Assembly: GCF_000340215.1 (NCBI RefSeq)
Contig: NW_006921535.1
Location: 3,706,596-3,770,595 of the forward strand
Length of the DNA: 64,000 nt
Direction: 5' to 3'
From: Pseudocercospora fijiensis CIRAD86
Lineage: Eukaryota > Ascomycota > Dothideomycetes > Mycosphaerellales > Mycosphaerellaceae
The notes beneath the pieces were generated by a model, which saw only the letters and a program-made list of their open reading frames with translations, was not told the origin of the DNA and searched no databases. This document shows positions 1 to 57,661 of the stretch, one piece after another. The position numbers and the translations under genes are program-made. Positions within the stretch are counted from its first letter, which is position 1, and each line of letters starts with the position of its first letter.

Positions 1-1
1 C

Positions 2-2068
2 TAGTATACTATTCAGGTCTACACGGACTATAACAACCTCCGTAGAATCACGAAGGTTACTAGGGTTATAGGTCGACAGGCTAGATAGGCCGTCTACCTC
101 GCCGGGTTCGATTTTAATATATTATACCGGCTAGGCGTAAGTAACCCTACCGATAGCCTATCGAGGCGACCTGATTACAATAGCGAAACCTAATATATCA
201 ATTCTTTGTTTCTAACCCTATAGTACAAGATCGCTATAGCCCGTATTGTTAATAAGCAAGCGTAGGATAAGCGGCTTACCGGACTCCGCGACGGCTTAAA
301 GCATATTAATACTCTTACTATATTAACAGTACGTGTTAAGGCAAGGGCTAAGGATATAGATAGGAGAAGTTATAATAACTCCCTAGTCGACATCGCAATA
401 TATAGTAACAGCGATAGTACTAATATAGTTAATCCGGCTGCTAGTGCTATTAGATATATATAATACGTACCTCGTTTAATAGCGAGGGTGCTATTAAATG
501 ACCTTGTAAATGGGGATAGTCAATCGTTTATAGATGAGCTGTTACGGGCTTAGCAGAGGGACGCCTTTGCTACTAAACGTATCGACAAGCTTATAAGTAG
601 GCGAAAGACTCGACCTAGTAAGAGTAACAATTAGTCGATCGATAACAAAGGTCATTTAAAGTTCAAGGGCAGATACTATGTCCCCGCTAAACATTCGATC
701 CGATAAGAGCTTCTTAAGCGATACTATAATAGTAAGCTTGCCGGTTACTATAGTATAGAGAGGTCGCACGAGCTACTATCGCGTATATACTACTAGCTAA
801 ATAGTAAGCGGGATATAAAGGAATACGTTAATACGTATGCTATATATTAACGTATTAAGGCACTAAAACATTAGCCTTTTAGCGAGTTGTCCTTATTACT
901 AATCCCTTATAAGCCATTTGCAGAGCTTATAATAGACTTTATTATAGGCCTTCTACCTGCCAAACGTAGGGGCAGTAAGGACATCTTCGATGCTATCCTT
1001 ATTATAGTAGATCGGTTTACTAAAGGCGCTCGATATATCCTAGCACAGAAGGATTGGACTGCTATTAATATAGTAGAGGCTCTATAGAGCAACATCTTCT
1101 ATACCTATTAGGGAACCCCTAAGGGGATAGTCTCTAACCGGGGTACGACATTTACATCCTATTATTAGAGCGAGATATGCCTATAGCTAAGACTGAAGTA
1201 TCGGCTATTAATAGCCTTCTATCTACAGACTGACGGTTAAACAGAGAGGCAGAATGCTACCCTATAGCAGTACCTACGCAGTTACATCAACGAGAACCCT
1301 AACGACTAGGTTAACCTCCTACAGCCTATAGAATTCGTATACAATAACAGTGTACACTCATCTACTAAGGTTTCGCTATATATAGCTATAATAGGTTAGA
1401 ACGCTGCTATGCTACAAGACCCCCTGTCGCTCGAGGCCGAGCGTAAGGAAAGGGAAGCGCGTTAAGTACCCGAAACACTAGCGGCTATTAAGAGGGTTCA
1501 AAAGATGCGAGAGATTTACGCTAAGTTGGCTAACAAACTAGCAAAGGCCTAGGCATATTAGAAGGCCTACTATAACAAACACTATACGCTAATAACTTTC
1601 AAGCAAGGCGATATAGTTATACTAAGTACTAAGAACCTCCGTATCCGCAAACACCTATTACCTAACGGCAAAACAAGGCCTAAGCTCGCACTAAGATACA
1701 TTAGTCTATTCCGTATTCGAGAAGTTAAGGGCTCCTCCGCATAGGCCTACTAGTTGTAGCTTCCTCCTTATTATACTATCTATAATACCTTCTATATATC
1801 CCTCCTTAAGCTATATTACCTACGCGAGGGGGATAAAGCCCCTACTAAACACGAAGACATACTAGCGGATAGTAAAGAGCTATAGTCTATAGAACGTATC
1901 CTAAAGCACCGGACTAGGCAAGGCAAGAAGGAGTACCTGCTAAGATAGCAAGGCTATTTACTAGAATAGGACTTATAGGAAGCTGAAGACTCCTTTAAGG
2001 ACATAACCGAGTTATTAGATAAGTATTAGACTAGCGTAAAGAACAAGAAGAAGGCTAAAAGCTTATAA
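2..2068 (+). pseudogene. gypsy pol remnant: RNase H end, integrase, chromodomain (A0)
   Basis: One frame can be followed from the left edge to a TAA at 2,066-2,068. It starts in the RNase H C-terminus (TDYNNL, then QARWAVYLAGFDFN with one W lost to TAG, then SRRPDY). An HHCC-like region follows at about 690-860. The integrase core is the only part still open, at 887-1,087 (IDFI, GSKDIFDAILIIVDRF, KDWTA). The frame ends in a chromodomain at about 1,900-2,060 in which Trp codons have become TAG. Stops are almost all TAG at expected Trp or Gln positions. The integrase would have joined the element cDNA to host DNA, and the chromodomain would have tethered it to heterochromatin. It is inactive. 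Confidence 0.85.
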
Positions 2069-3397
2069 TGTTACTACTAAGGCCTAGGATTAATGCCACC
2101 CCTAGGGTGCTATTAGCTAACTAATCAGAAGCAAGCAATTGTTAGCAACAAAGGACAATAAGACTATACTACTATAGTAAACGCGCACCGAGTGTTAACA
2201 AGCGCGCTACGACGCGTTAACTAATTGCCTACTCTTTTAAGGATTCTACCTCTTTACTAACGCGCCCTATAGGTCCCCTTCTTATTCCCTTATTCCGTCG
2301 AGGCCTCGAGGCCTAGGCAATCGGCGTAACCGGCGCGGCTATATTAGTAACAGTATTGCGGGGTGTATTGCTGTTTAAGAAAGGAAGGATACCGCTATAT
2401 TAGTAACGGTGTTACCGAGTTGTTATTAGTTAAAGAAGGTAAAGTTAGCGCTAAGACGACTAGCGCTGCTATTGTTAATATTACTTGCTGTTATCGCTGC
2501 GCCTATAGATATAACCTTACCTACACTACGAGCCTAAGGCACCTTTAATCAAAACTTTAATTAAAGCTTTAAGCCTGTTAAAGGTTTGATTAAAACTTTG
2601 AGGCTAAGTTAAAATTTTGACTAAGTTAAAAGATTAAGCGACTAATGGACTAACTAAGGGCAAAACTATAGAGCTAAGCTAGCCGGGGTCGATCTTGCGG
2701 ACAATAGGTTACTCCTCGATCTTTCCGACCCTTTAAGCGAGGCGAACCTCTACTACTACACTTATAATAGCCTTTACCTATAGAAACTAGAAGAACTGAG
2801 TTTTTTAAAAAGATATAATTAGTTAACACTTGAAGGCTGCCAAACCTAACCAATTTAGGCTAGTGAAACTACGACAGTAAATAATAGCCCTCGTAATAAT
2901 AAGAACAACCCTCGGAAGCGGACAAACCCTCGGAGCGGACATTTCTAGGTCTGTTAGAGTAGACGCAAAGAACTCGTACGACATTACTTAGAACGGAGGT
3001 AGTGCTACAATACCTCGTACGTCTACCTATTATAGCAGGGAAGACGCGCTCGTATTATAATTAGTCGATAGTCCTTAATTCTTATAGCTTTATATCCCTT
3101 NNNNNNNNNNNNNNNNNNNNNNNNNNNNNNNNNNNNNNNNNNNNNNNNNNNNNNNNNNNNNNNNNNNNNNNNNNNNNNNNNNNNNNNNNNNNNNNNNNNN
3201 TATTATAAGGATAGCGCAGTTAGAGTTGATATTGTATTGTATAGAGGTGAGGTTTAATATAGTTATATAATCAGGTAGTTAATTGTTCAATTTAGCGCGG
3301 CTAAGCAGCTTATTAGACTTGCTAAGTTAGCGGCAATAGAGGTCGGGATTGGAATATAGGTAGGCTACGAGGGCGCGGCCTTTAGAAGGGAAGCGTG
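2069..3397 (+). other. 3' spacer of gypsy A0, no recognised gene
   Basis: This stretch lies between the pol stop and the 3' LTR and is repeated in A1, A2, A3 and A4, so it belongs to the element. A 61-codon open frame at 2,363-2,548 has no recognisable domain and is not conserved as an open frame in the other copies. Several short inverted TTTAATTAAA-type runs lie at 2,545-2,620. An assembly gap interrupts it at 3,101-3,200. Confidence 0.7.
3101..3200. other. Assembly gap (100 N)
   Basis: Exactly 100 N, a conventional unknown-size gap. In A1 (about 19,470-19,515) the flanking sequences are separated by only some 20-30 bases, almost all of which are already present on the two sides of this gap. 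Little or no real sequence is therefore likely to be missing. Confidence 0.95.
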
Positions 3398-3594
3398 TGT
3401 TAGGGCTAAAGAGGCTATACGTGATTGGTATGTGACTAGGCCGAGTAAAGCTAGGGTCTCGATGCCTTAGGTAGGGCTTAGCGCTTAGCGTTAGGCCAAC
3501 TCTCCTGCCTTCCTCCCTCTCCTCCTAGATCCTTATCGAATACTAAACGGATTCACTACCACCCTATCTACCTACTAACATAACCCTTCTTATA
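3398..3594 (+). repeat. 3' LTR of gypsy A0
   Basis: A roughly 197-bp LTR beginning TGTTAGGGC and ending CCCTTCTTATA, matching the LTRs at 19,703-19,898 and, inverted, at 33,248-33,443 and 46,726-46,923. The CTAGGGTC and GCTTAGCGCTTAGCG segments are common to all copies. Confidence 0.82.
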
Positions 3595-3699
3595 GGGTGT
3601 TTCCCTATAGCTACTAGTATATATCTACTACTCCTAAGTCCTTACCTTACCGTACGAAACCTTAAAACATGCCGACCGATATTATATATATACTAGGCG

Positions 3700-6600
3700 C
3701 TATACTAGGAAGGGTAATAACGAGACGATAGTCGAAACAGTCTAGTATACGAGCGAGATTGCGACAACGTCGAGAGGAGGTCGTATACTTACCTTCGAGC
3801 CTATCGAGTCCTAGACGACGATTAGGGCTAGATTTATCCTCTCCGAATCCTAGTAGTAGGAATTTATTATAGGGTACTACTATATAGTCCTTACCTTTAC
3901 GGAGTCTAAGTAGAAGGTTATTCGGAGATATAAGAACATCGAGTATTAACCTAGATATCTTCGAAAAGGCTAGCTAGGCGTATCTTTAGAAACCCGAGTA
4001 TACCGAGCAGTTTAATTAATAGGTCTATAAGATATAGTTCCCTTTATACTTATATTCGAAGGAGTATAAACTCCGGAAGTACTCGATACGATAGGGTAGT
4101 AAGGAGCGAACGGATACATTCTAGAAGTTCTCTATAGAGGGGGCATTATACCGTTATACGACTTCTCGACTTAAAGGTTAACTAGTAATTGTCTATAACT
4201 TCTACGGTTTAATCTTAAAATACCCGAAACTAGGGGATAGGAACTTATCGCCTACGAACTATCTCTATTCTAAACAGTATCGGGAATCTTAAGAAGAGAG
4301 GAGGGTTAATATAGATATAGCGTTCTAGAAAGAGGCACGTCTTCTAACATACCGGCTATAGCTACCGGCTATAGCTACCGGCTATAGCTACCGGCTACTT
4401 TTATTAACCGTAGAGATCTAGCTAATTATTATAGGCTACGCTTAAGGAAGCTCTAGGATTAAAGGCTACCGATTTCTCCCCTAAAGACTTTAAGCAACTA
4501 GTAAACGAAATACTAGCTATAAACGGTCTTCCGGAAGACTTCTACGAAAGGGAGTCTATATAGAAGATATACCTATATCTTATAAACTACCCTCCCCTAT
4601 TTCTCGGCGCGACAACCTAGCGTATTATATTCGAAAAGAATAAAGAGGCTACATTAGACGATATTCGAGAGATCCTCCGTAATACTCGCCGAGTAGCTAT
4701 TACTATCGATAGCTAGTTAAGCTAGACTATAAGAGCCTCCTTCCTCTCGATTATACTATACTTTATTAATTCGGATTAGAAATTCTAGGAACTTATAATC
4801 GGATTCCCTAAAATTCTAGGTTCCTATACTAGTAAGGATATAGCGAAGCTTATCTATACGGCAATAGATAGGGTTAGCGTAATAACGAAACTAATCTCGA
4901 TTACTACGGACAACGCTAGTAATAATCGAACATTATATAAGGTATTATATATACAATTCACTTATATATATCTTTAAAATTACTAATTGTATCGATAGGG
5001 TCGAGTATATAGAGGAGATTATAAGGTCTATAATCTAGCTTAATCTTCCGAATATTAAGCTCGCTACGATTCCGGATACGTACGATAATACGTACGATAA
5101 TAACGATAAAGAGGAGCCTAGTAATAGCCCTAGCCCTATTAAATCGGAGCCGACGTCGTTGCTAGTTATATCCCTATAGAAGTTTCTCTACCTCGCTTAT
5201 ATAGTTTAAATCGCGATCCGAGCCCTCTTTAAGACGCTTAAAATTACACTATTAAACGACGACTAATAGAAGATCCTAGATAAGGATAAAGCAAAGTCGA
5301 AAGTCGAGAAACTCGTTATAGTAATAAAACGGGATAAGGCCGAGAGCCTCGCTCTCGTTTTATATAAGGTATAACTTTTGTCCGTAGCCGGTACCTATAG
5401 CCGGTAACTTAGTATAGTTCTAACTTTTTTTCTCTAGCTTCGTCGTCTAGCAATATATACGAACTCGAGCTTATAGAGATATAACCGATTCGAGGCTATT
5501 TAAAAGAACCTAATCGAGCGCCCTAAAACCGATATCTAGAATATCGTATAGAATAAGCGATAGCAAAAGCGGCCTCCTTAGCGCCTACTCCGTTTTACCT
5601 AAGACGTTAAGACCTAGTTCGATTCGACTTTCTATATAGTTACGAGGGGATATACTTTATATACCGCTCTCGAGATCTATTAGAGTTCCGAGGGTATTAA
5701 GTAGCTCGGCCTTACCGCCGCCGAATAGCGCTAAGTAGAGTATCTCGTCGATATTAGTAATTATTACGCGAAGGTTACTACTACGATTAGAAGAACCTAA
5801 GGACCGATAATCTACCTTATCTTTACGTACTATAACTAGCTCTTTAACGAGCTCGACGAAACCGTAGCTAAGCTAGCTAAGAAGAGCGTTCCCTAGAAAG
5901 TAGCTATAACGAAAGCTATAGACACCTCCTATACTAAGTTATATAAATATTATAGTGCTACCTTTAAGTCGTTCGGAGATATCTATAGCGTTACGTACTT
6001 ACTTAACCCGGTAGAAAAGGATATATACTAGTAGAGGCCGGAATAGAAGGCAGACGAGGTATAGCCGAAGCATTACTAGACTATTCTAGAAAAGATATTC
6101 TACGAGCGTCGGAAAGAAACTAGTCTAAATATAGCTCCTATAAAGAAAAAGAAGGTTTAGAAGGCTCCGATATTATACCTATTTCGTAGGTAGGAAGTAG
6201 AGGCAGAAGAGGAAGCAACTACTAAAGTAAATAAAGAAGAGTTCGATCTCTATCGGCGCGCGAGTAAGTATAAATCCGTAGGCTCGGAAAGAGGGCTAAT
6301 AATCTCTAGATCTTACCGGTCTTCTAGACGAATTTAGAGACAATATTCTCGCTATATAGTAGCGGTTAGAGCCTAAGTTTCTAACGATAGCGTCGGTCGC
6401 TCGGAACGTCCTCGCTATACCGAGCGTAGGTATAGGCTATAAGAGGTCTTTTAGTATCGCTCGTTATTAGGTCCGCTTTAATCGAAGACACTCGCCTACT
6501 ACTTTCGAATCTATTATAGTATTCCGATACTATCTCCTCTACTAGAGTCGCTAAGGTAGGTTACTAAAGATTATACTAAAGGAGTTAATCGAGGAATTAG

Positions 6601-6790
6601 AAAACCTTAAGATCGAAGAAACCTAGGAGCGCGAAGAGAATACGAAATTTAGTCTAAGCGAAACCCTAATTAGCGATAACGAAGAAGAGGAAGGCGGAGG
6701 TAGAAGGCGATACCGGATCGAGAAGCGGAAACGTATATAGGCTTAGAGTAGCTTTAAAGAGACGAAGCGTTTACGTAGAAGGTAATATAG
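3700..6790 (+). pseudogene. hAT-family DNA transposase remnant
   Basis: A RIP-mutated transposase of the hAT superfamily, which moves DNA elements by cut and paste. Visible landmarks in order are an acidic-residue region with TIDS and a lost Trp at about 4,695-4,720, the sequence TTDNASNN at about 4,895-4,925 (the hAT second-aspartate motif), an LNP...Y region near 6,000-6,030, and the C-terminal dimerisation motif at about 6,379-6,480 (ARNVLAIPS, then SFSIARY). Most stops are TAG at likely Trp or Gln positions, and some frame changes occur. The N-terminal limit is uncertain; 3,700-4,400 carries open stretches that I could not match. No convincing terminal inverted repeats or 8-bp target duplication were found, so the element's ends are unknown. 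Tandem CCGGCTA units interrupt the N-terminal part. Confidence 0.75.
4351..4401. repeat. Tandem CCGGCTATAGCTA units
   Basis: Four head-to-tail copies of a 13-bp unit (CCGGCTATAGCTA). The same CCGGCTA/TAGCCGG core recurs singly or in pairs at about 5,384-5,410, 6,796, 7,799-7,822, 8,884, 9,063, 9,102-9,125, 10,287-10,312, 11,077-11,098 and 11,318-11,341, and as a four-unit array at 9,660-9,710. These clusters are confined to 4.3-11.4 kb; single CCGGCTA matches elsewhere belong to retroelement coding sequence. Confidence 0.8.
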
Positions 6791-7149
6791 CTAGTATATA
6801 TAGCCGGTATATATCCGAAATATATTTCGAATTCCTAGGACCTAAACAGACTAGTTACTATAGCAACCTACCCCGCTTACCTACGGACTATTTCTAATTC
6901 TCTATTCGCTCTTCCTCTCCTTCTTCCCTTTCCTTATATTCTTAAAGACAAATATACCTTAAGGATTCGGCTCTTCGGGCCTTCCTAAGCCGGCTACCTC
7001 CCCTTCCTTAAGCTACTATCCTTTATACGAATCTAACGATAACCTACTAAGGCGGTTTAATAGAAGACTATTTATTCTAGAAGGTAAGAAGCATTAATAT
7101 CTTCTTACGATTATAGGCTTATTAATTTTCTAGGTCCTACCGATATACC
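6791..7149. other. RIP-mutated DNA, no gene recognised
   Basis: This is a short stretch between the hAT dimerisation domain and the basic tail of the first histone-like frame. It is pyrimidine-rich around 6,900-7,020. I see no domain. It could hold the 3' end of the hAT gene and the promoter of the histone-like gene. Confidence 0.4.
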
Positions 7150-7738
7150 CTCGTCGCCTAAACGCGTAGATAAATATCTTTAGAGCCTAAAGGGCAAGGG
7201 TAAAGCAAGCTAGGTATAGGGAGACCGTAGCGAGAACGAGATATCGGAAGAGTAAGACTCTCTATAGTATATACGAAGGAAAGGGATTCCTCGGAAAATA
7301 GTACTAAAAAATAAGAAGGCTTTAGGTAGATAAGAGAAGGCTAAAAAGAGTAGACGGACGAAGGCTATTATAAAGAAAAGTTATCTTTCTATTAAGAAAA
7401 AGGGAATAAGGTAGGACTCGACGATAAAGAAGCGGCGCTTTAAACTAGGTACTATTACCCTTCGCTAGATCCGGCTTTTCTAAAACAAAAGAGGGACCGA
7501 GCTTTTAATCCCTAAGACTCCCTTCTAGCGACTCGTCCGAGAAATTATATTAGATTTTCGGTCTAGTATACGATTTACGGCTAAGGCGATTAGTACTCTT
7601 TAGGAAGCTACGGAGGCATTTCTCGTAACCGAGCTTAAGCTTTTAAACCTACTTACTATCTATACGAAGCGGGTTACTCTTTAAAATAAAGATATATAGC
7701 TTCTAGCTAAAATTCGGCGTCGGTTTATAGCGGATTAG
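7150..7738 (+). pseudogene. Histone H3-like pseudogene, copy 1 (intronless)
   Basis: From 7,433 to 7,738 one frame reads as a complete H3 histone fold: R-F-K-L-G-T, then TLR, TELLIPKTPF, RLVREI, DFR, IRF, AI, TEAFLV, NLL, then TKRVTL and KDI. In-frame stops lie where histone H3 carries Gln55, Gln68, Gln93 and Gln125, each one C-to-T change from CAG or CAA, plus one more before NKDI. Loop lengths match canonical H3 apart from one extra residue before TELL, so the longer CENP-A loop 1 is not seen. The same frame upstream (about 7,170-7,432) encodes a long Lys/Arg-rich tail unlike the standard H3 tail. No intron interrupts the fold. Cargo of a transposon or a duplicated cellular H3 variant are both possible. 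It is inactive. The start is unknown because ATG is destroyed. Confidence 0.8.
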
Positions 7739-8135
7739 TTAGAAATTGTATTTAGTCGGTAGATTAACCTAGGAGGAGGCCTATTTTCGTATCCTTTTAC
7801 CGGCTATAGGTACCGGCTATATTTCTAATTTTATCTCCGCGCCGTCCCTAAATCTAAGGTACGAAGTAGAAACCTAGCGCTCTATATTTACCCGGCTATT
7901 ATAGAGACGAGCTATATTTAGATTAGTTTCTTCGTATATCGCGACCTAGTAGGTAGTAAGGGAAAGGGCGATAGAACGTTTATAATATATCTCTATTTAG
8001 ACCTAAAATATAAAGGTCCTAAGGAGCCCTAGTATCCTAACTATAAGGAGATTCTTTAGCATTAGCACTTTAATCCTCTATACTACGAGGCAGATAGCAA
8101 GCCTACGAGAGAGAAACTTTAACGAGAAAATTGAA
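7739..8135 (+). other. Possible coding continuation after histone-like copy 1, unidentified
   Basis: The reading frame of copy 1 continues to a TAA near 8,120, with stops that are all single-step RIP products. Short plausible strings appear (ETSYI, SFFVYRDL, GDRTF) but I recognise no family. A CCGGCTA pair lies at 7,799-7,822. Whether this was a C-terminal extension of the histone-like protein or a separate gene cannot be told from the sequence. Confidence 0.3.
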
Positions 8136-8858
8136 ATTCTCTATAATACGTAGCGCTATTATATAGCTATAGATACGTACTAAGTCCGGCAACTCGAAGA
8201 AGAATTAAGATAGCGTATTAGCGACCGAGGAGGAGATCGATAGTATACTAGTAGAGTCGAGGTCTTATAAGCGAAGTATAAGATAATATAGGCTCCTAGT
8301 TATTTAGAGTAACGTACTATATAAATAACTAGGTATATTACTCTTATTCACTTACGACCTATATCCTAGGATACTCTTCTCGTACTTTTTATACTCTTTT
8401 CTAATACCTTACCTATAATCGCTCCGCGATAACCGAGTAAATATAAGCTATAGGATTTCCGCTCGGTACCTTAGCCTTCGAGATACGGCGGAGTTGATTC
8501 TCTATAATACGTAGCGCTATTGTATAGCGACAGATACGTACTAAGTCTAGTAACTCGAAGAAGAATTAACTTAATTAAGATAGCGACCGAGTAGGAGATT
8601 AATAGTATATTAGTAGAGTCGAGGTCTTATAAGCGAAGCACGAGATAATATAGGCTCTTAGTCGTATAGAGTAACGTACTATATAAATAACTAGGCGTGC
8701 TACTCTTATTTACTTACGACTTATATTCTAGGATACTCTTCTCGTACTTTTTATACTCTTTTCTAATACCTTACCTATAAGCGCTCCGCGACAACCGAGT
8801 AAATATAAGCTATAGGGTTTCCGCTCGGTACCTTAGCCTCCGAGATAGGGCAGAGTTA
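8136..8858. repeat. 361-bp direct tandem duplication
   Basis: Two adjacent copies begin at 8,136 and 8,497, both with ATTCTCTATAATACGTAGCG, and both end in a CGAGATA...GAGTT segment. The period is 361 bp and the copies differ mainly by TpA versus CpA or TpG, plus short indels near 8,200 and 8,570. No coding potential was recognised in either copy. Confidence 0.85.
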
Positions 8859-9386
8859 AATTTAGAGCGATAGCTAGCACTCGTAGCCGGTATATAGAGA
8901 CGGTAGTAGGCCTTTTCCTACTAAATAACTAGCTTGTTTAGTATAGCCTACCTAATATTTCTTATATTTCCTAGTAATAGGCCTAGGTTACTTATAAGAT
9001 TACTATAGCTAGTAAAGGCATTACTAAAGAATATCTATACTATAGTAGGATACTATTATTACGCCGGCTATTTATTAAAAGGAGGCTTTCGCCTATTACT
9101 ATACCGGCTATATATGCCGGCTATATTTCAAAGTTTGCCGTACCTGCCTTTTTTAGCCGTACCTACCTTCTTTCCTTACTCTAACGTTACTATAATATAG
9201 GCTTGCGCGACGCTTACTCTATTGCCTAGCGATACCGCGATACTACCTCTCTCGCTATATTTAACCTTCGTATCGATACCTATACCTCTACGCTCTATAT
9301 CTACTATCTCCGTAATACCCTCGCTCCGCGCGCGCTTTCGTATACCTTCGTAACGTACTTTTTTCCTTAATTCGACGATTTTTATA
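8859..9386. other. RIP-mutated upstream flank of histone-like copy 2
   Basis: No gene was recognised. The stretch contains four CCGGCTA-type units (8,884, 9,063, 9,102-9,125) and a pyrimidine-rich run at 9,130-9,370 directly upstream of the histone-like frame, where a promoter or leader would be expected. Confidence 0.4.
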
Positions 9387-9651
9387 ATACCGAGTCTACT
9401 AAACTAAGTTACGACGCCTCGTAAGAAGGGACCTACTACTTCTACGGGTCGTAATAAGACCGGAAATAGTAGAACGAGTATAGTATATTAACGTAAGAAG
9501 GCTGCTACTACTACCGCTAGATCTAGTACTAGAAAGGGCGTCGCGAGTAAGGCTCCGCGTAAGACAACGGTAGGCAAGGCTCTACGTAAGACGACAACTA
9601 GCGCTTCTACTACTAGTAGCAATCGTACGAAGCGTCGATAGCGCCTAGGAA

Positions 9652-9742
9652 GTAAGTCCTATTTGTAGCCGGTAGCGTAGCCGGTAGCGTAGCCGGTAGC
9701 GTAGCCGGTATTCTTACTATCTTTTTACTAATCCTTCTTTAG
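9652..9742 (+). other. Intron 1 of histone-like copy 2
   Basis: Donor GTAAGT at 9,652, branch-like CTAAT at about 9,729 and acceptor TTTAG at 9,742. Removing these 91 bases makes the H3 core continuous and in frame. Four GTAGCCGGTAGC units (about 9,660-9,710) fill most of the intron. A kept intron argues against origin by retroposition. Confidence 0.8.
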
Positions 9743-9925
9743 CCGTAGCCCTCCGTAAGATTTGGTAGTATTAAAAGAGTTCTAAGCTCCTAATCCGCAA
9801 AGCTCCTTTCTAACGACTTGTTCGCGAAATTGCCTAGGATTATAGAACGGACCTTCGCTTCTAAGCCTCCGCGATAGGCGCCCTTTAAGAGGCTATAGAA
9901 GCCTACCTAGTTCGTATCTTCGAAT

Positions 9926-9973
9926 ATATATTTCTCTTCTACCTCTTTTCGGACTATGCTAATACTAGTTTAG
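9926..9973 (+). other. Intron 2 of histone-like copy 2
   Basis: 48 bases. The donor now reads ATATAT, which is GTATAT after one TpG-to-TpA change. GCTAAT lies at about 9,959 and the acceptor TTTAG ends at 9,973. Removing it restores the exact H3 residue spacing between FE and NL, where the unspliced frame would carry a 16-residue hydrophobic insertion. Confidence 0.7.
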
Positions 9974-10200
9974 CGGTTAACCTTATAGCTATCTACGCGA
10001 AGCGTATAACGATTATAGATAAGGATTTTAAAGCACTCGATTAGATTCTAAAAGGCTAGAATGTCTATATTCGAGATAGTACTAGGTAGGATAGATATTC
10101 TAGTAGGAAGGATATTCGTAGTATCGTCTATAAGCTTTTCTATATACGAAATAAGCCGCTGTTATACGGCGCTATATACCGCGGTCTAAATACTCTCTAA

Positions 10201-10384
10201 GTATATATATATAGTATAGTATGCTTTATTAGCCGTACGGAATAGAAGTCTTCGAAAATCCCGTTAGTTCTAAGGAGTAAAAAGGCCGGCTACGCTGCCG
10301 GCTACGCTACTAGGTTTTTTAAAGAACTAAAAGAAGATATATATTCCGGTTAATTTGTATTAGTTTAGATTTTTATAAAAAGAA
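10201..10384. other. RIP-mutated DNA, no gene recognised
   Basis: A short interval between the second histone-like frame and the minus-strand frame that follows. It contains a CCGGCTACGCTG pair at 10,287-10,312. Confidence 0.35.
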
Positions 10385-10930
10385 AACAGGGAAAAATAAG
10401 GAAGGTTGAAGAGCCTAATACTTATAGTTATAGGCATTATCCCTATTTTCTAGACTATATTATATACCTGCCTTTGTAACTCTACCTAATACTCCCTCTA
10501 AATATCCTTATACTCTACCTACTAGAAATTCAACTAGGTACCTAAACCTATAGCTACCTCTATATCTTTTACTATCTTCTATAGGTTAAAGGACTCCTCT
10601 ATAGTAGCCTCTACCTCCTTATATAATACGAAGTTACTGCCTACCCTATCCTTAATATCTCCTAAATAACTAAGAGTTCTAAGGAACGAACTAGTATTCG
10701 GCCTTAGTATAGCGAGTAACTAGTAGAACGTTCTATAGAGCTGCCTTATAGCTCTTTTATATACTATACCGATACCGAGGGAGGAGCTATCCTAGTACTT
10801 AATGTTAGAGAATAGTTTAGTTAGAAAGTGTTCGAACTTCTTAAGGAGGGCTTCTAGGGAAATCGATAAGTTCTGCCTAGATCTAGATAATAATATTCTA
10901 CCGAGCAGTTAGGGAATTAAATAGCGAGCG
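10385..10930 (-). pseudogene. Unidentified protein remnant
   Basis: On the minus strand one frame of about 180 codons is interrupted mostly by TAG that fits lost Trp or Gln codons. It contains an amphipathic LLKKFEHFLTKLF stretch, then RAIRQLYRTFY, SFLRTLSYLGDIKDRVG and KEVEATIEESFNL. It looks like real coding sequence because sense codons are varied and stops are few for such TA-rich DNA. I do not recognise the family. It may belong to the same element as the hAT transposase, or be another captured gene. Confidence 0.4.
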
Positions 10931-11502
10931 AAAGGATGAAATTTATACCTAATAAGTGCAGTTTCTAAACTAAACTATAATAGCTTATATATGTATGTAT
11001 GCTTTTAATTAGTTAGTGCCCTTAGCTAATTGTCTATAGATTTAGGGTTATATAAGTACCTTCCTACAACTAAAAAGTGCCGGCTACGCTGCCGGCTATA
11101 CTCTCGTATCTTATAAAGGGCTTGCTTCGAGTTACGTAGACATTCTTATACTTCTTAGAAACCGATAAATTCTATAGTTCGAACTAGCTAATCCTGTAGT
11201 TGCTTAGCAAACTAACCTAAACCAAACTAGATCTTCGGCTTAGCGAACTAAACCAAACTAACCCGAACTACTACGGGGTCTAAAAGAGCGTAGTAAATAT
11301 AATATAGTTACTATTATAGCCGGCAATCGTAGCCGGCAGTCGAATAAGAGTGTCCTTATAGTAAAACTAATATAGTCTCTAGTTTAAACTAGGAATCTAT
11401 ATAGTTCGAAAAAACCAAACCGGAACTAGGGAGCTAGTTCGCCGCTAAGAAACTAAACTATATACGTTTAGTAGTTCGGAAACTAAACTACTACGGGGTC
11501 TA
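10931..11502. repeat. Repeat-bearing junction segment with CTACTACGGGGTCTA pair
   Basis: No gene was recognised. A 15-bp sequence (CTACTACGGGGTCTA) occurs at 11,268-11,282 and again at 11,488-11,502, the second copy ending exactly where gypsy A1 sequence starts. Around both are AACCAAACTA and GAACTA-type motifs, reminiscent of subterminal repeats of DNA transposons. CCGGCTA or CCGGCA pairs lie at 11,077-11,098 and 11,318-11,341. It could be the right end of the element carrying the hAT transposase, but no partner terminus was found near 3,595. Confidence 0.45.
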
Positions 11503-11899: not shown

Positions 11900-14800
11900 C
11901 CCTTCTTTCCCCCTCTTCTTCCCTCCTTCTTATCTACTCCTTAGTTTCCCTTGCTAGTGCGAATTATTGTATAAATCCCTATTTAATAATCTACTTTACT
12001 ATCCTCTTTAGGTCTTCTTTGCTCTAGATTAGCTTATCGTATTCCCTTTCTATTGCTTTTAGTCTCTAATTACTTCTACCTTCTAACTATTAAGGGCAGA
12101 CTAGTAGTATATACTTAGGGTTGTGAGATTGGTAGCTATATTAGTAAGCCCTGCTTTTAATTCCTAGGACGTTTCTTCTAAATAGGTAAGATCTGAGTCT
12201 AATATGTTTAGATCTGATTTGGATAGCTAAGCTTGCCTCGGCCCTATTTAGGTCCTTATAGAGCTAGTAGTTGTATTAACTAAATTTGATTAGTGCCTTT
12301 AGGGTTCCTAGTCTAACTTGTATTTTGTTCTATTCCTGCTCCTATAGGTATCTAGCAATTGATTCTGCTAGGCTTTGTTTCGCTCCCTTTAGCTTATCTT
12401 CCTTTAGCCTTATATTTGGTCCCTAAAGCTCTTTCTCTAGCATTTCTCTTATTAAGACTCTATATTGCTCTAGGTCTTTGACTTTCTAGGGAGTTATTTG
12501 TAGTCTGTCTCGCCTCCTAGTCCTAATATACTAGGCTTTTATCTTATCTAGTGCCTTTTAGATAGTCTGTTAGGCTAGGTATTCTATTGTCTTTGCTGCA
12601 TATTAGTGTCTTAGTCCCTTAAAGTATTGTTTAACTAGTAGGATCCCTAATTCCATTTCTACTACCCTTGTTAGTATAGTTTTGTATACTCCTAGGATTT
12701 TCTTTAGGCTTTAGGTTTAGGACCTGCTAACTAGTTGCTTAATCCTCTTTAGTGTTTTCTCCTAGGCTGTCTATATCTATGCTCTATATAGTATTACTAG
12801 CTTAACAATTGCTTTGTATATAACTTTAGCTTTCTCGAATGTAGCCCCCTATATAGAGGCTATAAGCCTATTAATGGATTGTATGTTAGCATCTGCCCTC
12901 TGCTTTACCTTCTTTACTTATAGTCCCTAATTCAGTTTTGGATCTAGCTAGATCCCTAGTACCCTAAGCTCTGCTAATAGTTGGGTTTTAAAGCCTTAGA
13001 TAGTAATTGATTGCTTTATATTATAGGTTGATTTAGCCTTGCTAAAGTAAATGAGCTAGTACTTTTCTAGGGCGAATTTTGCTCTATGCCTCCTTGCCTA
13101 TTTTTTATACTCTTAGTGCTTCTCTTCTAGGATCTTGCAGTTGGTTTCTATTGTCTTAGACTAGGCTAGGATGTTTGTATTATCTACAAACCCTAATGCT
13201 GATATGTTTTTTGATTCTAGGAGTAGGAGTAGGTCTATTATAAAGATAAGGAAGAGGATTAGGGAGAGTGTTAATCCTTAGGGGATTCCCTTTTTAGTTA
13301 GCATTAGGTCTGATTTGAATTTGCCTAGAATAAGCTATATCGATCTTTCCTATAGGAAGGACTAGATGAATTGGACTATCTAGTTTAGTATAGCTTTCTA
13401 TTTGAGTATATATAGGAGCCTTTTATAGGAGACATTGTTAAAGGCTCCTAAGATATTAAGGGAGAGGAGGGTTGCTACCTAGTTTTAACTATAGTGCTAG
13501 ATATGCTTAATCTGTTCTGTAATTAGTTCTATAGCTGTTAGTATTAACCTCTTCTTTCTTCCTCCTATCTAGCCTTTAGGAAGGATATTCCTTTCCTCGG
13601 CAAAGGTTGTTAGCCTTCTAGCGACAATTTTTTCTAGCACCTTGCCTATTGTATTAAGTAGGGCTATTAGTCTATAGGCCTTAAGCTATATATAGTCTTC
13701 CTTCTAGGGCTTCCTTAGCACTACTATTAGGGACTTCCTAAATAGTCTTAGGTAGTATCCTAGTGCTAGGCTTTGTAAAAAGATATTGGCTAGTGCTAGG
13801 GCTAGCCCCTTCCTATATGCTTTTAGAAGTTTGTTATAGATCTTGTCTTCTCCTAGTGCCTTATTGCCTAGAATTTTCTTTAGGATCCTTTCAATAGTTT
13901 CGGGTTTAACCTAGGTATCTCTTAGTATGCCTAGTAGTAGGGTCTCTTATTCTTTCTCCTTTATGTCTAATAGGTCTGCTTGTACTTTTCTATAGAAGAA
14001 GTATTAGCCTAGGGCTCTTACTTTCCCTTCTATTGTAGTCTACATTTGTCCTTATTAGTCTATAATATCCGGGAATTGTAGTAGCATATCCTTATCCTAT
14101 TTAGGTCTCCTTGCCTATTTAGCTATCCTCTATATCTCCTCTAGTTTCTTTATAATCATTCCTATTATAGATCTCTATTCTTGTATCTTATCTTTCTTAA
14201 TCTAGATCTTCTTTTCCTAGTAGGCTTTATTATAGTTGTCCTATACTTCCTAGGTATAGGTTTGTGTCTACTGCCTCCTAGCCTTCCTTACTGCTTTAAC
14301 CTTCCTTATATACTTACTAGTCTAGTATAGTTGCTAGTATAGTGAATGTTTCTTTGCTAGGGTATGCTTTCTAGCTACCTGTTTTAGGATTCCTGTTAGT
14401 TCTTCTACTACCTTATTAATGTCCTCTAGCCTTAGTAGGTACTTTGTTAAGAGTTCCTCTAGTTTTAGGTCCCTTTCTAGTTCCTTCCTAATCCTGCCCT
14501 ATTAGGTACCTTTCTAGTTAAGCTTCTCCTCTAGTTCCCTTTCCTAATTAGTTTAGACATTTAGCTTAATCTATACCGGGAAGTAGTCTAATGATTCTTC
14601 TAGTTCCTAGTTAACCCTATATCTTATAATCCTGTTCCTAATCTAATGTAATGCAAAGTATAGGTCTAGTATGCTACTGCTTCCTCTTGCCTCCTAAGTA
14701 ATTAGTCCCTTTAGGGTAACAATTTCTATTCCTTCCCTCTCTAATATGTCAATTAGTCTTCCTACTAGGAAGTAGTAAGCTAGGGTAAAGTCTAAGCCCT

Positions 14801-15260
14801 AGAGGGGGTAGTAGAGGTTGAAATCCCTAAGTAGGATTTAGTAGGTATTCCCCTAGATAACTCTAGGTAGTCTTTCTAGGGTTTTCAGTTAGGTACTGCT
14901 TCTTAAGTCTAGTAGTGGGTTGTATATACAGTGGACTTAGAGTGTACCTTAGGATGTCTCTACTTAAACTAATATTAGGTCCCTATCCTCCTATAGTATA
15001 GCCTGCTAGGTTTCTATATCTATCTCTTTGCTAATGTAGATGCATGTCCTTAGGGCTCCCTAGTTATAGATAATTAGGTAGTATCTTAGGTCTTTAACTA
15101 TTGCTAGTCTCTTTGTATATAGGTTGAGCTAGGGCTCTTAGATTGCAATAATGTAATATTCTTTTAGGTTTAGTACTTAAAGGAAGCTCCTCTATACCTT
15201 GTCTTTGCTCTTGTTAACATTGTACTATATAATGTTTAGTAATATTGCAATGTTTATTGG
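11900..15260 (-). pseudogene. LINE 1 ORF2 remnant: endonuclease and reverse transcriptase
   Basis: At the 5' part (about 15,250-14,600) the frame shows an APE-type endonuclease with an N-terminal NVNKSKDKV region, AI.EP, and a DFNLYYP-like stretch. The reverse transcriptase follows with GIP.G near 13,290 and the catalytic box at about 13,172-13,186. The box reads FVDNTN here, against FVDDTN in copy 2, so one catalytic aspartate has been lost by G-to-A change. Many TAG stops replace Trp and Gln codons. The enzyme would have nicked the target and primed reverse transcription from it. It is inactive. Confidence 0.8.
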
Positions 15261-16546
15261 GTTTTATCTATATTATTTCCCTATAAGTTTTCCTTTAGTC
15301 TTCCCTTACTTTAGACTAACATTTAACTAAGCTTTGTCTGCCCTGCTTCCTTTCCTGCAATATTAAGGTATCTTAGTCTCCCTAATTACTAGTAACTTTC
15401 TTATACTAGTAAGGCCCTGAATGTAAACCTATTATCTTGTCTAGACCTCTTTTATAGCACTTAGCTCGGTTGCTTCTGTACCTAGCTGCCCTAGCTTATT
15501 GTGTATCTTTTTAGTGTGTTGATTCTAGCTTCCTTTGCCTTCCTAGCTGCCTATATTCTTACTAGGTATTCCTTCGCCTATAAGGGGTGTCTTTTAGTGC
15601 AGTATATATATCTTGCTTCTCCCTTATATGCTTTGCATTCTTTAACCTAGTAATCCCCTATATAATAGGAGTAGGTATTAGTTGTCTTTATGCACTTAGC
15701 TGCTAAGTGTCTATAGTATTAACATTTAAAGCACTGTATTATCCTATAGTTGCTTCTATATATCTCTGTTTCCAATCTTTTAAAGTCCTAGAACAACCCC
15801 TAGTCTAGTACTATGTTAGCTTGCTCTATACTCCCTATCTAGATAATTAGGGAAGACTGCTTCTTAGTCTCTTCGATTTTCCTTTTAATCTATGCCACTT
15901 TTGTAATCTTTAGGCCTAGGTATATAGCTTAGTTTTGTCTCTATAGGCTCTCAATATCCTATTCTTCCTTAAAGCTTCTTATTATACTATAGGCTATAAT
16001 TATAAATTGCTGTTAGGAGACCTTTGCTGTTTTCCCTATCTTGGTTATCTATTCTTTTTGTGTTTCTAGCTTCTTTTTATCCTGCTCTTGTGCTATAAAC
16101 AGCTTAATTACCCCTTTACCTTCGTTCTTAGCCCTAATTACCTCTTTAACTGCAATTCTTTCTACAATCTCTTTCCCTATAAGTCCTTAGATTTCCTTTT
16201 GCTCCTATAGGTCCGTAATATAGACTCTAACTACTGTCCTCGGGGGTTTTAGCGCCTCCTAACTAGCTACTACCGCCTAGGTGCGGTAGTTTAGGCTTGT
16301 CTCCTATTGTTTCTTCGTAATCTTTACTACGACTATATTAGCGACCTTTGTAATTACGTAGCTTGCCTAGCTATAGATTGCTTTCAGTCCTCTAAGGAGT
16401 TCTAAGATTATTATCCTATATGCCCTCTTAGGGGTTCTTCTATCTTCCGCCTTTAGTACCTCTTCTGCCCTAGTATATAGTGCTTTCTATTCGTCCTCCC
16501 TTCCTTCTTAACTGTCTTCCCTTCGTCTCTAATTGTTCGCTGCCAT
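15261..16546 (-). pseudogene. LINE 1 ORF1 remnant: zinc-knuckle nucleic-acid-binding protein
   Basis: A possible start ATG lies at 16,546-16,544 (MAANN, then Lys/Arg-rich). Near the C-terminus (about 15,735-15,590) the frame carries CFKC, four residues, H, four residues, C, then a second knuckle with Cys changed to Tyr and a third partial one, as in ORF1 of Tad-clade LINEs. The Cys-to-Tyr changes are TGY-to-TAY transitions. It is inactive. Confidence 0.75.
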
Positions 16547-16569
16547 TTTCTCTTTACGCGAGGTATATC

Positions 16570-52959: not shown

Positions 52960-55900
52960 ACCCTACCCTTCTTTCCCCCTCTTCTTCCCTCCTTCTTATC
53001 TACTCCTTAGTTTCCCTTGCTAGTGCGAATTGTTATACAAATCCCTGTTTAATAATCTACTTTACTATCCTCTTTAGGTCTTCTTTGCTCTAGATTAGCT
53101 TGTCGTATTCCCTTTCTATTGCTTTTAGTCTCTAATTACTTCTACCTTCTAACTATTAAGGGCAGACTAGCAGTATATACTTAGGGTTCTAAGATTAGTA
53201 GCTATATTAGTAAGCTCTGCTTTCAATTCCTAGGACGTTTCTTCTAAATAGGTAAGATCTAAGTCTAATGTGTTTAGATCTAATTTAGATAGCTAGGCTT
53301 ACCTCGGCCCTATTTAGGTCCTTATAGAGCTAGTAGTTATATTAACCAAATTTGATTAGTGCCTTTAGGGTTCCTAGTCTAACTTGTATTTTGTTCTATT
53401 CCTGCTCCTATAGGTATCTAGCAATTGATTCTACTAGGCTTTGTTTCTCTCCCTTTAGCTTGTCTTCCTTTAGCCTTATATTTAGTCCCTAAAGCTCTTT
53501 CTCTAGCATTTCTCTTGTTAAGACTCTATATTGCTCTAGGTCTTTAACTTTCTAGGGAGTTATTTGTAGTCTGTCTCGCCTCCTAGTCCTAATATACTAG
53601 GCTTTTATCTTGTCTAGTGCCTTTTAGATAGTCTGTTAGGCTAGGTATTCTATTGTCTTTACTGTATATTAGTGTCTTAGTCCCTTAAAGTATTGTTTAA
53701 CTAGTAGGATCCCTAATTCTATTTCCACTACCCTTATTAGTATAGTTTTGTATACTCCTAGGATTTTCTTTAGGCTTTAGGTTTAGGACCTACTAACTAG
53801 TTGCTTAATCCTCTTTAGTGTTTTCTCCTAGGCTATCTATATCTATGCTCTATATAGCATCGCTAGCTTAACAATTGCTTTATATATAACTTTAGCTTTC
53901 TCGAATATAGCCCCCTATATAGAGGCTATAAGCCTATTAATAGATTGTATATTAGCATCTGCCCTCTGCTTTGCCTTCTTTACTTATAGTCCGGACCCTA
54001 ATTCAGTTTTAGATCTAGCTAGATCCCTAGTACCCTAAGCTCTACTAATAGTTAGGTTTCAAAGCCTTAGATAGTAATTGATTACTTTATGTTATAAGTT
54101 GATTTAGCCTTACTAAAGTAGATAAGCTAGTACTTTTCTAGGGCGAATTTTGCTCTATACCTCTTTACCTATTTTTTATACTCCTAGTGCTTCTCTTCTA
54201 GGATCTTACAGTTAGTTTCTATTGTCTTAGACTAGGCTAGGATGTTTGTATCATCTACAAACCCTAATACTAATGTGTTTTTTGATTCTAGGAATAGGAG
54301 TAGGTCTGCTATAAAGATAAGGAAGAGGATTAGGGAGAGTATTGATCCTTAGGGGATTCCCTTTTTAGTTAGTATTAGGTCTAATTTGAATTTGCCTAGA
54401 ATAAGCTATATTGACCTTTCCTATAGGAAGGACTAGATAAATTGGACTATCCAGTTTAGTATAGCTTTCTATTTAAGTATATATAGGAGCCTTTTATAAG
54501 AGACATTGTTAAAGGCTCCTAAGATATTAAGGGAGAGGAGGGTTACTACCTAGTTTTAACTATAGTGCTAGATATACTTAATCTGTTCTGTAATTAGTTC
54601 TATAGCTGTTAGTATTGACCTCTTCTTTCTTCCTCCTATCTAGCCTTTAGGAAGGATGTTCCTTTCCTCGGCAAAGGTTGTTAGCCTTTTAGCGACAATT
54701 TTTTCTAGCACCTTACCTATTGTATTAAGTAGGGCTATTAGTCTATAGGCCTTAAGCTGTATATAGTCTTCCTTCTAGGGCTTCCTTAGTACTACTATTA
54801 GGGACTTCCTGAATAGTCTTAGGTAGTATCCTAGTACTAGGCTTTATAAAAAGATATTAGCTAGTACTAGGGCTAGCTCCTTCCTATATGCTTTTAGAAG
54901 TTTGTTATAGATCTTGTCTTCTCCTAGTGCCTTATTGCCTAGAATTTTCTTTAGGATCCTTTTAATAGTTTCGGGTTTGACCTAGGTATCTCTTAGTGTG
55001 CCTAGTAGTAGAGTCTCTTGTTCTTTCTCCTTTATATCTAATAGGTCTGCTTATACTTTTCTATAGAAGAAGTATTAGCCTAGGGCTCTTGCTTTCCCTT
55101 CTATTGTAGTCTACATTTGTCCTTATTAGTCTATAATGTCCGGGAATTGTAGTAGTATATCCTTATCCTGTTTAGGTCTCCTTGCCTATTTAGCTATCCT
55201 CTATATCTCCTCTAGTTTCTTTATAATTATTCCTATTGTAGATCTCTATTCTTATATCTTATCTTTCTTGATCTAGATCTTCTTTTCCTAGCAGGCTTTG
55301 TTATAGTTGTCCTATACTTCCTAGGTATAGGTTTGTATCTACTGCCTCCTAGCCTTCCTTGCTACTTTAACCTTCCTTATACACTTACTAGTCTAGTATA
55401 GTTGCTAGTATAGTAAATGTTTCTTTACTAGGGTATGCTTTCTAGCTACCTGTTTTAGGATTCCTATTAGTTCTTCTACTGCCTTATTAATGTCCTCTAG
55501 CCTTAGTAGGTACTTTATTAAGAGTTCCTCTAGTTTTAGGTCCCTTTCTAGTTCCTCCCTAATCCTGCCCTATTAGGCACCTTTCTAGTTAAGCTTCTCC
55601 TCTAGTTCCCTTTCCTAATTAGCTTAGACATTTAGCTTAATCTATACCGGGAAGTAGTCTAATAATTCTTCTAGTTCCTAGTTGACCCTATATCTTGTAA
55701 TCCTATTCCTAATCTAATGTAATATAAAGCATAGGTCTAGTATACTACTGCTTCCTCTTGCCTCCTAAGTAATTAGTCTCTTTAGGGTAACAATTTCTAT
55801 TCCTTCCCTCTCTAATATGTCAATTAGTCTTCCTGCTAGGAAGTAGTAAGCTAGGGTAAAGTCTAAGCCCTAGAGGGGGTAGTAGAGGTTGAAATCCCCT

Positions 55901-56330
55901 AGTAGGATTTAGTAGGTATTCCCCTAGATAACTCTAGGTAGTCTTTCTAGGGTTTTTAGTTAAGTACTGCTTCTTAAGTCTAGTAGTAGGTTATATATAC
56001 AGTAGACTTAGAGTATACCTTAGGATATCTCTACTTAAACTAATGTTAGGTCCCTATCCTCCTATAGTATAGCCTACTAGGTTTCTATATCTATCTCCTT
56101 ACTAATATAGATACATATCCTTAGGGCTCCCTAGTTATAGATAATTGGGTAGTATCTTAGGTCTTTAACTATTACTAGTCTCTTTATATATAGGTTGAGC
56201 TAGGGCTCTTAGATTGCAATAATGTAATATTCTTTTAGGTTTAGTACTTAAAGGAAGCTCCTCTATACCTTGTCTTTGCTCTTATTAATATTGTACTATA
56301 TAATGTTTAGTAATATTGCTATATTTATTA
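52960..56330 (-). pseudogene. LINE 2 ORF2 remnant: endonuclease and reverse transcriptase
   Basis: Collinear with LINE 1 ORF2: endonuclease at about 56,320-55,650 and reverse transcriptase with GIP.G near 54,350 and FVDDTN near 54,250. Both catalytic aspartates of the box are kept, so copy 1's Asn is a private mutation. TAG stops remain throughout. Confidence 0.78.
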
Positions 56331-57617
56331 GGTTTTATCTATATCATTTCCCTATAAGTTTTCCTTTAGTCTTCCCTTACTTTAGACCAATATTTAACTA
56401 AGCTTTGTCTACCCTGCTTCCTTTCCTGCAATGTCTAGGTATCTTAGTCTCCCTAGTTGTTAGTAACTCTCTTGTACTAGTAAGGCCCTAAATATAAACC
56501 TATTATCTTATCTAGACCTCTTTTATAGCACTTAGCTAGGCTGCTTCTGTACCTAGCTGCCCTAGCTTATTATATATCTTTTTAGTATATTGATTCTAGC
56601 TTCCTTTACCTTCCTAGCTGCCTATATTCTTACTAGGTATTCCTTTGCCTAAGAGGGGTGTCTTTTAGTATAGTATATATATCTTGCTTCTCCCTTATAT
56701 GCTTTGCATTCTTTAACCTAGTAATCCCCTATACAATAGGAGTAGGTATTAGTTGTCTTTATGTACTTAGCTACTAAGTGTCTATAGTATTAACATTTGA
56801 AGTACTGTATTATCCTGTAGTTGCTTCTATATATCTCTGTTTCCAATCTTTTAAAGTCCTAGAACAACCCCTAGTCTAGCACTATGTTAGCTTGCTCTAT
56901 ACTCCCTATCTAGATAATTAGGGAAGACTGCTTCTTAGTCTCTTCGATTTTCCTTTTAATCTATGCCACTTTTATAATCTTTAGGCCTAGGCATATAGCT
57001 TAGTTTTGTCTCTATAGGCTCTTAATATCCTGCTCTTCCTTAAAGCTTCTTATTATACTATAGGCTATAATTATAAATTGCTATTAGGAGACCTTTACTG
57101 TTTTCCCTATCTTGGTTGTCTATTCTTTTTGTGTTTCTAGCTTCTTTTTATCCTATTCTTATACTATAAATAGCTTGATTACCCCTTTACCTTCGTTCCT
57201 AGCCCTAATTACCTCTTTAACTATAATTCTTTCTACAATCTCTTTCCCTATAAGTCCTTAGATTTCCTTTTGCTCTTATAGGTCCGTAATATAGACTCTA
57301 ACTACTGTCCTCGGGGGTTTTAGCGCCTCCTAACTAGCTACTACTGCTTAGGTGCGGTAGTTTAGGCTTATCTCCTATTGTTTCCTCGTAATCTTTACTA
57401 CGACTATATTAGCTACCTTTGTAATTACGTAGCTTGCCTAGTTATAGATTGCTTTTAGTCCTCTAAGGAGTTCTAAGATTATTATCCTATATACCCTCTT
57501 AGGGGTTCTTCTATCTTCCGCCTTTAGTACCTCCTCTACCCTAGTATATAGTACTTTCTATTCGTCCTCCCTTCCTTCTTAACTATCTTCCCTTCGCTTC
57601 TAATTGTTCGCTGCCAT
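56331..57617 (-). pseudogene. LINE 2 ORF1 remnant
   Basis: MAANN-type start near 57,615. Zinc-knuckle cluster near 56,800-56,650 with Cys and His partly changed to Tyr. Collinear with LINE 1 ORF1. Confidence 0.7.
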
Positions 57618-57661
57618 TCTTTTTGCTCTCTTCGTATTATATAAGGAGGTAGAGGCTGCTA

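What the first reader, a model, noticed from the sequence alone, without database searches (positions are those of the whole stretch)
7150..10200. Two histone H3-like pseudogenes inside a RIP-mutated transposon block
Seen: two same-strand frames about 2 kb apart read as H3 histone folds (PF.RLVREI, TELL or KLLIRK, EAFLV or EAYLV, TKRVTL or AKRITI, KDI). In-frame stops fall at the H3 glutamines 55, 68, 93, 125 (copy 1) and 55, 68, 76, 85, 93 (copy 2), as CAG/CAA-to-TAG/TAA predicts. Copy 2 also keeps the KAPRK-xxxx-KAxRK tail spacing. Known: RIP needs duplicated DNA, so these genes existed in more than one copy. Inference: an H3 variant was captured as cargo of a repeated element, perhaps the one encoding the adjacent hAT transposase, or an H3-variant locus was amplified and silenced. 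A transposon carrying its own nucleosome component would be a notable system.
Basis: partly seen in the sequence, partly recalled or inferred. Interest (0 to 1): 0.87.

Follow-up and report, generated by a model that had tools for sequence, protein, structure and literature searches.

The report
Dead fungal transposon carrying histone genes
The two broken histone H3 genes are real and sit in a hAT transposon of a banana-pathogen fungus that was described in 2019, but introns in one of them and an old pattern of silent changes suggest that they were working genes, not captured junk, before the fungus mutated them.

Summary
Two H3-like sequences lie on one strand (window about 7340-7723 and 9486-10056); both match PF00125 with stops masked. 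They sit in a left-truncated hAT element, 3594-11282. Ten siblings followed to both ends are 9.53-9.96 kb, with 20-bp terminal inverted repeats (10 of 10) and exact 8-bp target duplications (9 of 10). The genome fits Pseudocercospora fijiensis, where Dhillon et al. 2019 (PMC6710886) reported 784 H3-like copies in 471 hAT elements, RIP-inactivated except the original gene.

I add two things. First, copy 2 is not a transcript copy: it has two RIP-damaged introns, one 3 nt from the host's second H3 intron, and a 48-nt one at codon 106 (31 of 31 copies) that was published as a '16-aa insertion'. Second, transversions, which RIP does not cause, show a silent excess in the H3 frames between two element subfamilies (17 synonymous per 120 sites, 20 nonsynonymous per 430; Fisher p 0.0006); the five other frames show none for that pair. 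So the H3 genes look like former working genes. What they did is inference.

The parts
3594..11282 (+). hAT element remnant; about the first 2.1 kb (left end and left TIR) missing, abutting a Ty3/gypsy-like fragment
   Evidence: 19 sibling stretches align; homology starts at 3594 in 16 of 19 and reaches 11282 (within 3 bp) in 12 of 19; full siblings 9,529-9,956 bp
4648..4920 (+). hAT transposase stretch, RIP-damaged, upstream of and in the same direction as the H3 copies
   Evidence: tblastn with a hAT frame of the same genome (L042): window E 6e-5, 32% over 94 aa; sibling element E 8e-9, 36% (E-values for these single sequences)
7340..7723 (+). H3-like copy 1: end of tail and histone fold, no intron in this stretch; the frame runs on upstream as a basic extension
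   Evidence: PF00125 E 6.7e-20
8136..8857 (+). tandem duplication of a 361-bp unit between the two H3 copies
9486..9651 (+). H3-like copy 2, exon A (at least this much; start not determined): N-terminal tail with KAPRK-type motifs, ending in RPG plus the first base of T45
9652..9742 (+). intron A of copy 2 (GTAAGT ... ACTAAT ... TTTAG), containing a variable-number short repeat
   Evidence: GTAAGT donor in 29 of 31 copies
9743..9925 (+). copy 2, exon B: V46 to E105
9926..9973 (+). intron B of copy 2, 48 nt, phase 1 of codon 106; donor changed at TpG sites (published as a 16-aa insertion)
   Evidence: 48 nt in 31 of 31 copies
9974..10056 (+). copy 2, exon C: from codon 106 to the end of the block compared
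11263..11282 (-). right terminal inverted repeat, 20 bp

Best explanation
This is a left-truncated, RIP-dead copy of the 9.5-10 kb hAT DNA transposon that spread H3-like genes through the Pseudocercospora fijiensis genome (published). Shown here: the element carries two old, distinct H3 paralogues; copy 2 has two segments with all the marks of spliceosomal introns; and between the main family and the L010 subfamily both H3 frames changed mainly at silent sites. Inferred: before RIP the element made H3-like proteins that were useful to the transposon (or to the host); the main family then amplified in a burst, and RIP, which acts on repeats, put stop codons at the glutamines of the copies. How the proteins helped is not known. 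The most likely role is altering the nucleosomes on or near the element so that it could be transcribed or transposed.
For: Histone hits with stops masked. TIR in 10 of 10 and exact 8-bp TSD in 9 of 10 full siblings. RIP: of 1055 two-state columns among 11 copies, 976 are transitions, 704 of those in CpA context. Host H3 has 3 exons, 411 nt, 136 aa, on contig 6, as published. hAT: tblastn match and, in another listed H3 element, a hAT dimerisation-domain match on the same strand about 830 bp before copy 1 (C11:1685556-1685726, E 0.004, above its cut-off, against H3 at C11:1686556). Selection: main family vs L010, transversions only, synonymous 17/120, nonsynonymous 20/430, Fisher p 0.0006; permutation p 0.0006; the five other reading frames of the same DNA give p 0.10 to 0.98. 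Introns: the 48-nt segment is in 31 of 31 copies, 27 of 31 by the strict splice pattern; donor G kept at position 1 in 6 of 27 and at position 5 in 8 of 27, otherwise A, in TpG context.
Against: The selection test is significant by Fisher in 10 of 18 pairs; pairs share branches, and main family vs L023 or L024 is not significant (p 0.16, 0.23). In exon B of copy 2 those two pairs even have pN above pS. For L013-L024 the true frame gives p 0.11 and one reverse frame p 0.04. Only 37 transversions carry the main result. A scan of the whole element by 600-bp windows gives only z 1.1 to 2.2 in the H3 frame around the copies. Intron B is an open frame in nearly all copies and hardly varies between subfamilies, as a real protein loop would. 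No RNA evidence exists for either intron. Pfam found no hAT domain in the stop-masked sibling element.
Confidence: 0.7

Rival explanations
1. Passive transduplication (the published view): a transcript or retrocopy of the host H3 gene was captured once by a hAT element, spread as a passenger, and was inactivated by RIP.
For: Copy 1 runs through the site of the host's second intron without a break. The published analysis found exon-exon junctions (PMC6710886). 148 of the 150 scored matches have stops; the two without are host H3 and host CenH3. Some subfamily pairs show no silent excess.
Against: Copy 2 has an intron 3 nt from the host's second intron and another at codon 106. Host H3 does not fall beside either copy in the tree. 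A passenger should not show the silent excess of transversions seen against the L010 subfamily.
Confidence: 0.23
2. The 48-nt segment of copy 2 is a coding insertion (a 16-aa loop after E105), as published, not an intron.
For: Open frame in nearly all copies, multiple of three, few changes between subfamilies.
Against: GTATGT-type donor, CTAAT branch 10 nt before TTTAG, pyrimidine tract; leaving it out restores exact H3 length. Two outside H3-like proteins carry inserts at the same site whose peptides are compatible with a phase-1 intron there, against 213 of 200,000 random 19-mers and 36 and 3 of 50,000 shuffles; that rule was written after I had seen the peptides.
Confidence: 0.13
3. Amplified host CenH3 or a silenced host H3-variant locus, not transposon cargo.
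For: Some CenH3-like residues in copy 1 (EAFLV, Q50).
Against: Loop 1 has H3 length, not the longer CenH3 loop; host CenH3 (L028) groups with other CenH3s at 99/98 and 100/99. The ten siblings followed to both ends lie between the same TIRs.
Confidence: 0.02

Closest known systems
H3-carrying hAT family of Pseudocercospora fijiensis (Dhillon et al. 2019, PMC6710886)
   Same: 9.5-9.9 kb, 20-bp TIR, 8-bp TSD, one or two H3-like copies, '16-aa insertion' in the second, RIP, host H3 of 3 exons and 411 nt on scaffold 6
   Different: Nothing in kind: this window holds a member. New here: introns in copy 2, silent excess of transversions, and subfamilies 74-91% alike by segment.
H3L-carrying hAT element of Pyrenophora tritici-repentis (Manning et al. 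2013, PMC3538342; passages read)
   Same: hAT element with a divergent H3-like gene between its TIRs; its authors note ESTs and ask whether there is selective pressure for captured genes
   Different: 5.6 or 2.3 kb, one H3L, a central ORF, copies very similar and mostly intact. PMC6710886 reports no similarity of its hAT elements to the Pyrenophora one; I had no H3L sequence to compare.
Divergent H3-like proteins P0035 (Peltula sp. MAG) and P0072 (unnamed contig)
   Same: Insert at the same H3 site, compatible with a phase-1 intron in codon 106; fall on the element side of the tree, support 94/84
   Different: Intact frames; genomic setting and DNA not seen; long branches, so the grouping is weak.

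Membership tests
Published P. fijiensis H3-hAT family | Full length about 9.5-9.9 kb | tested here: met
   10 siblings of 9,529-9,956 bp; the window copy itself is truncated
Published P. fijiensis H3-hAT family | 20-bp TIR and 8-bp TSD | tested here: met
   TIR 10 of 10, exact TSD 9 of 10; right TIR in the window, left end absent
Published P. fijiensis H3-hAT family | Species: 74-Mb genome, host H3 on scaffold 6, 3 exons, 411 nt, 136 aa | tested here: met
   73.9 Mb; C6, 25+108+278 nt. The species name comes from the match to the paper, not from a tool.
hAT transposon | Transposase with hAT domains | tested here: inconclusive
   tblastn match to a hAT frame, E 8e-9 (sibling) and 6e-5 (window); one weak PF05699 match (E 0.004) inside another H3 element; no Pfam hAT domain in the stop-masked sibling L013
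Histone H3 | Histone fold with H3-specific residues | tested here: met
   PF00125 in both; for the copy 2 profile the best solved-structure matches are H3.1 chains
CenH3 / CENP-A | Longer loop 1 and grouping with CenH3 | tested here: not met
Processed (intronless) H3 copy | No introns | tested here: not met
   Copy 2: two introns. Copy 1 does meet it over the stretch examined.

The most novel reading that the evidence does not exclude
A lineage of hAT transposons that keeps its own pair of fast-evolving H3 variants as working element genes, older than and separate from the host's H3, possibly related to the H3L-carrying hAT of Pyrenophora and to divergent H3s with an intron at codon 106 in other fungi: mobile DNA that brings its own nucleosome part.
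Probability: 0.33. Interest if true: 0.78.

Novelty: already known. Interest (0 to 1): 0.4.

Why it matters
The amplification of H3 by this hAT family and its RIP inactivation are in print. If the added evidence holds, the story changes from accidental capture of a host transcript to a transposon that carried selected histone variants for a long time. That makes a testable claim about mobile elements acting on chromatin with their own histone, and it reopens the statement that the Pseudocercospora and Pyrenophora cases are independent.

Tried and rejected
CenH3 origin: rejected by loop 1 and the tree. H113Y as a shared derived trait of both copies: dropped, because CAY to TAY is what RIP makes. 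Reading the copy-2 insert as a protein loop shared with P0072: thought possible (note), then dropped when the peptides of P0035 and P0072 proved compatible with an intron at the same phase. Coding scan of the whole element: not clean; frame +0 reaches z 3.7 at 2401-3000, but opposite-strand frames reach 4.0 and 3.5 nearby, so I draw nothing from it. DUF659 and Dimer_Tnp_hAT searches of the genome (22 and 64 matches), compared by eye with the H3 places listed (150 each, capped): no DUF659 match and one Dimer_Tnp_hAT match lie inside a listed H3 element. Homologue searches: copy 1 found 16 proteins among 44 candidates, none with a Pyrenophora name (most carry no name); copy 2 alone found none; its alignment gave 7963, best 120 listed. 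P0072 in viral contigs: none. The proteins I looked at near the top (P0017-P0019, P0023) hold duplicated H3 stretches and were set aside. For the trees I chose 8 of 16 hits and a few of the 120. Literature: seven searches; in their listings I saw no report of introns in, or selection on, these transposon H3s, but the library holds open-licence papers only and I opened three.

Full report
What is there. Both H3-like frames are real. With stop codons read as X, window 7100-8200 and 9100-10300 match PF00125 at E 6.7e-20 and 8.6e-17. The host genome (73.9 Mb, 30 contigs) gave 772 first-look candidates for PF00125; the 150 scored all match at E 2.8e-20 or better. All but two have four to seven in-frame stops, nearly always TAG or TAA. 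The two without are the host H3 on contig 6 (L001, the best match) and an exon of the host CenH3 (L028).

The element. Nineteen sibling stretches align with the window; homology starts at 3594 in 16 of 19 and reaches 11282 (within 3 bp) in 12 of 19. Ten siblings extended to both ends are 9,529-9,956 bp long, start and end in a 20-bp inverted repeat (TAGACCCCG[C/T]AGT[G/A]GTTCGG, the variants being RIP-type changes), and nine of ten are flanked by an exact 8-bp direct repeat. The window copy has lost its left 2.1 kb at the edge of a Ty3/gypsy-like fragment with integrase, Tf2-type SH3 and weak chromo matches at 1-3594. A hAT transposase frame from the same genome finds one stretch upstream of the H3 copies on the same strand: E 8e-9 in sibling L013 and 6e-5 in the window (4648-4920). 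In another listed H3 element a hAT dimerisation-domain match (E 0.004) lies on the same strand about 830 bp before copy 1 (C11:1685556-1685726; H3 at C11:1686556). Pfam finds no hAT domain in the stop-masked sibling L013. Of the ten full siblings, the three of 9.53-9.58 kb have one, and the seven of 9.92-9.96 kb have two, units of a 361-bp tandem repeat between the H3 copies.

RIP. Among ten siblings and the window, 1055 alignment columns have two states: 976 transitions (704 in CpA context) and 79 transversions. TpA/ApT is 1.83 in the element and 0.52 at window 59001-64000. Several stop positions still have CAG or CAA in siblings. Positions 59, 108 and 121 of copy 2 are stops in some rows and AAG, AAC or GAC/GAT in others, so they need another change besides RIP.

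Already published. Dhillon et al. 2019 (PMC6710886; I read the abstract, Background, Results, much of the Discussion and the Methods) describe this in Pseudocercospora fijiensis: 784 H3-like copies in 471 hAT elements, about 9.5 kb, 20-bp TIR, 8-bp TSD, one or two H3 copies per element, a 16-aa insertion in the second, inactivated by RIP except the original gene, which has three exons, 411 nt and 136 aa on scaffold 6. The genome fits in size, element length, TIR, TSD, and the structure and contig of host H3. A 2026 paper on Pseudocercospora cites the finding (PMC13041039, passages). Manning et al. 2013 (PMC3538342, passages) described a smaller hAT with a divergent H3L in Pyrenophora tritici-repentis.

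New: introns. The paper concludes that a transcript was captured because introns are absent, and its Methods say that insertions were removed by hand from the protein alignment. In copy 2 I find two introns. Intron A (window 9652-9742) has the donor GTAAGT in 29 of 31 copies (L052 has CTAAGT; L053 has other sequence there), ends with a CTAAT-type branch and TTTAG, varies in length by a short internal repeat, and lies between RPG-A and CC-VALREI, which read on as RPGTVALREI. The host's second intron is one codon earlier, in the same phase. Intron B (9926-9973) is the published 16-aa insertion: 48 nt, donor [G/A]TAT[G/A]T, branch [G/A]CTAAT, acceptor TTTAG, phase 1 of codon 106. It is 48 nt in 31 of 31 copies; 27 of 31 fit the strict pattern and four have changes at its edges or in it. 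The donor keeps G at position 1 in 6 of 27 and at position 5 in 8 of 27, one copy keeping both; the rest have A, the RIP product at TpG. Two outside proteins found with the copy-2 profile, P0035 (Peltula MAG) and P0072, have an insert of 18 residues net at exactly this place. Both peptides are compatible with a phase-1 intron having a standard donor, branch and acceptor; 213 of 200,000 random 19-mers are, and 36 and 3 of 50,000 shuffles of the two. Copy 1 has no intron over the stretch examined.

New: selection before RIP. RIP makes transitions, so I counted transversions only, in codons without a stop. Between the main family (L013) and the L010 subfamily, both H3 copies together have 17 synonymous changes per 120 sites and 20 nonsynonymous per 430 (Fisher p 0.0006). 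A permutation that keeps base composition, counting from the L013 side, expects 8.0 synonymous changes and sees 18 (p 0.0006). The same DNA read in the five other frames gives p 0.64, 0.55, 0.15, 0.10 and 0.98. Of 18 pairs tested, 10 have Fisher p under 0.05; some pairs rest on one copy only. Of 7 distinct pairs permuted, 6 have p under 0.05. Pairs share branches, so these are not independent. Against it: L013 with L023 or L024 is not significant by Fisher (0.16, 0.23); in exon B of copy 2 those pairs have more nonsynonymous than synonymous change per site; for L013-L024 the true frame gives p 0.11 and one reverse frame 0.04; and in a coarse scan of the element the H3 frame reaches only z 1.1 to 2.2. 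In the blocks compared, copies within the main family differ by almost no transversions.

New: relationship. Copy 1 and copy 2 each form a clade across the subfamilies sampled (5 and 7 rows; 100/99 each by the group table), on long branches, apart from host H3 and host CenH3. With more H3s added (32 rows), host H3 groups with a Microdochium H3 (96/93), and the element copies lie with P0035 and P0072 on one side of a branch (94/84, not conclusive; long branches). So the two genes were distinct before the subfamilies parted, and these trees do not tie them to the host's present H3 gene.

How it most likely worked. Shown: a hAT-type element with two H3-like genes, intron marks in one, a silent excess in the past for the best-diverged pair of subfamilies, RIP later. 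Inferred: the genes were expressed, and the proteins entered nucleosomes or competed for H3 chaperones to the benefit of the element. Not shown: expression, splicing, assembly, benefit. The copies I read all carry RIP-type stops.

Noticed in passing
window 1-3594: Ty3/gypsy-like fragment (integrase zinc-binding, Tf2-type SH3, weak chromo match) that ends exactly where the hAT element is cut off; its last 320 bp or so are matched by sequence that also matches several other places in the window.
   Followed up: partly
window 14350-16549 and 55421-57624: Two copies in the window of another repeat, 92-95% identical to the flanks of L017 and L019.
   Followed up: no
window 8136-8857: 361-bp tandem unit between the H3 copies; one or two units explain the two length classes of the ten full elements.
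   Followed up: yes
window 9660-9720 and copies in L009-L027, L043-L052: Intron A of copy 2 holds a short repeat (AGCCGGCAGCGT-like) whose unit number varies between copies.
   Followed up: no
window 9486-9651: The copy-2 tail carries a GKAPRKTTA-type motif one to three times in siblings, as if the H3 K14-K18 region had been multiplied.
   Followed up: no
window 61399-62064: Only ATG ORF of 150 aa or more in the window; methyltransferase domain (PF13489, E 3.5e-8), in the GC-rich block after 58 kb.
   Followed up: no
L042 (C6:3122626) and C2:4666571: hAT dimerisation-domain matches in nearly open frames of about 800 aa, so less damaged hAT genes exist in this genome.
   Followed up: no
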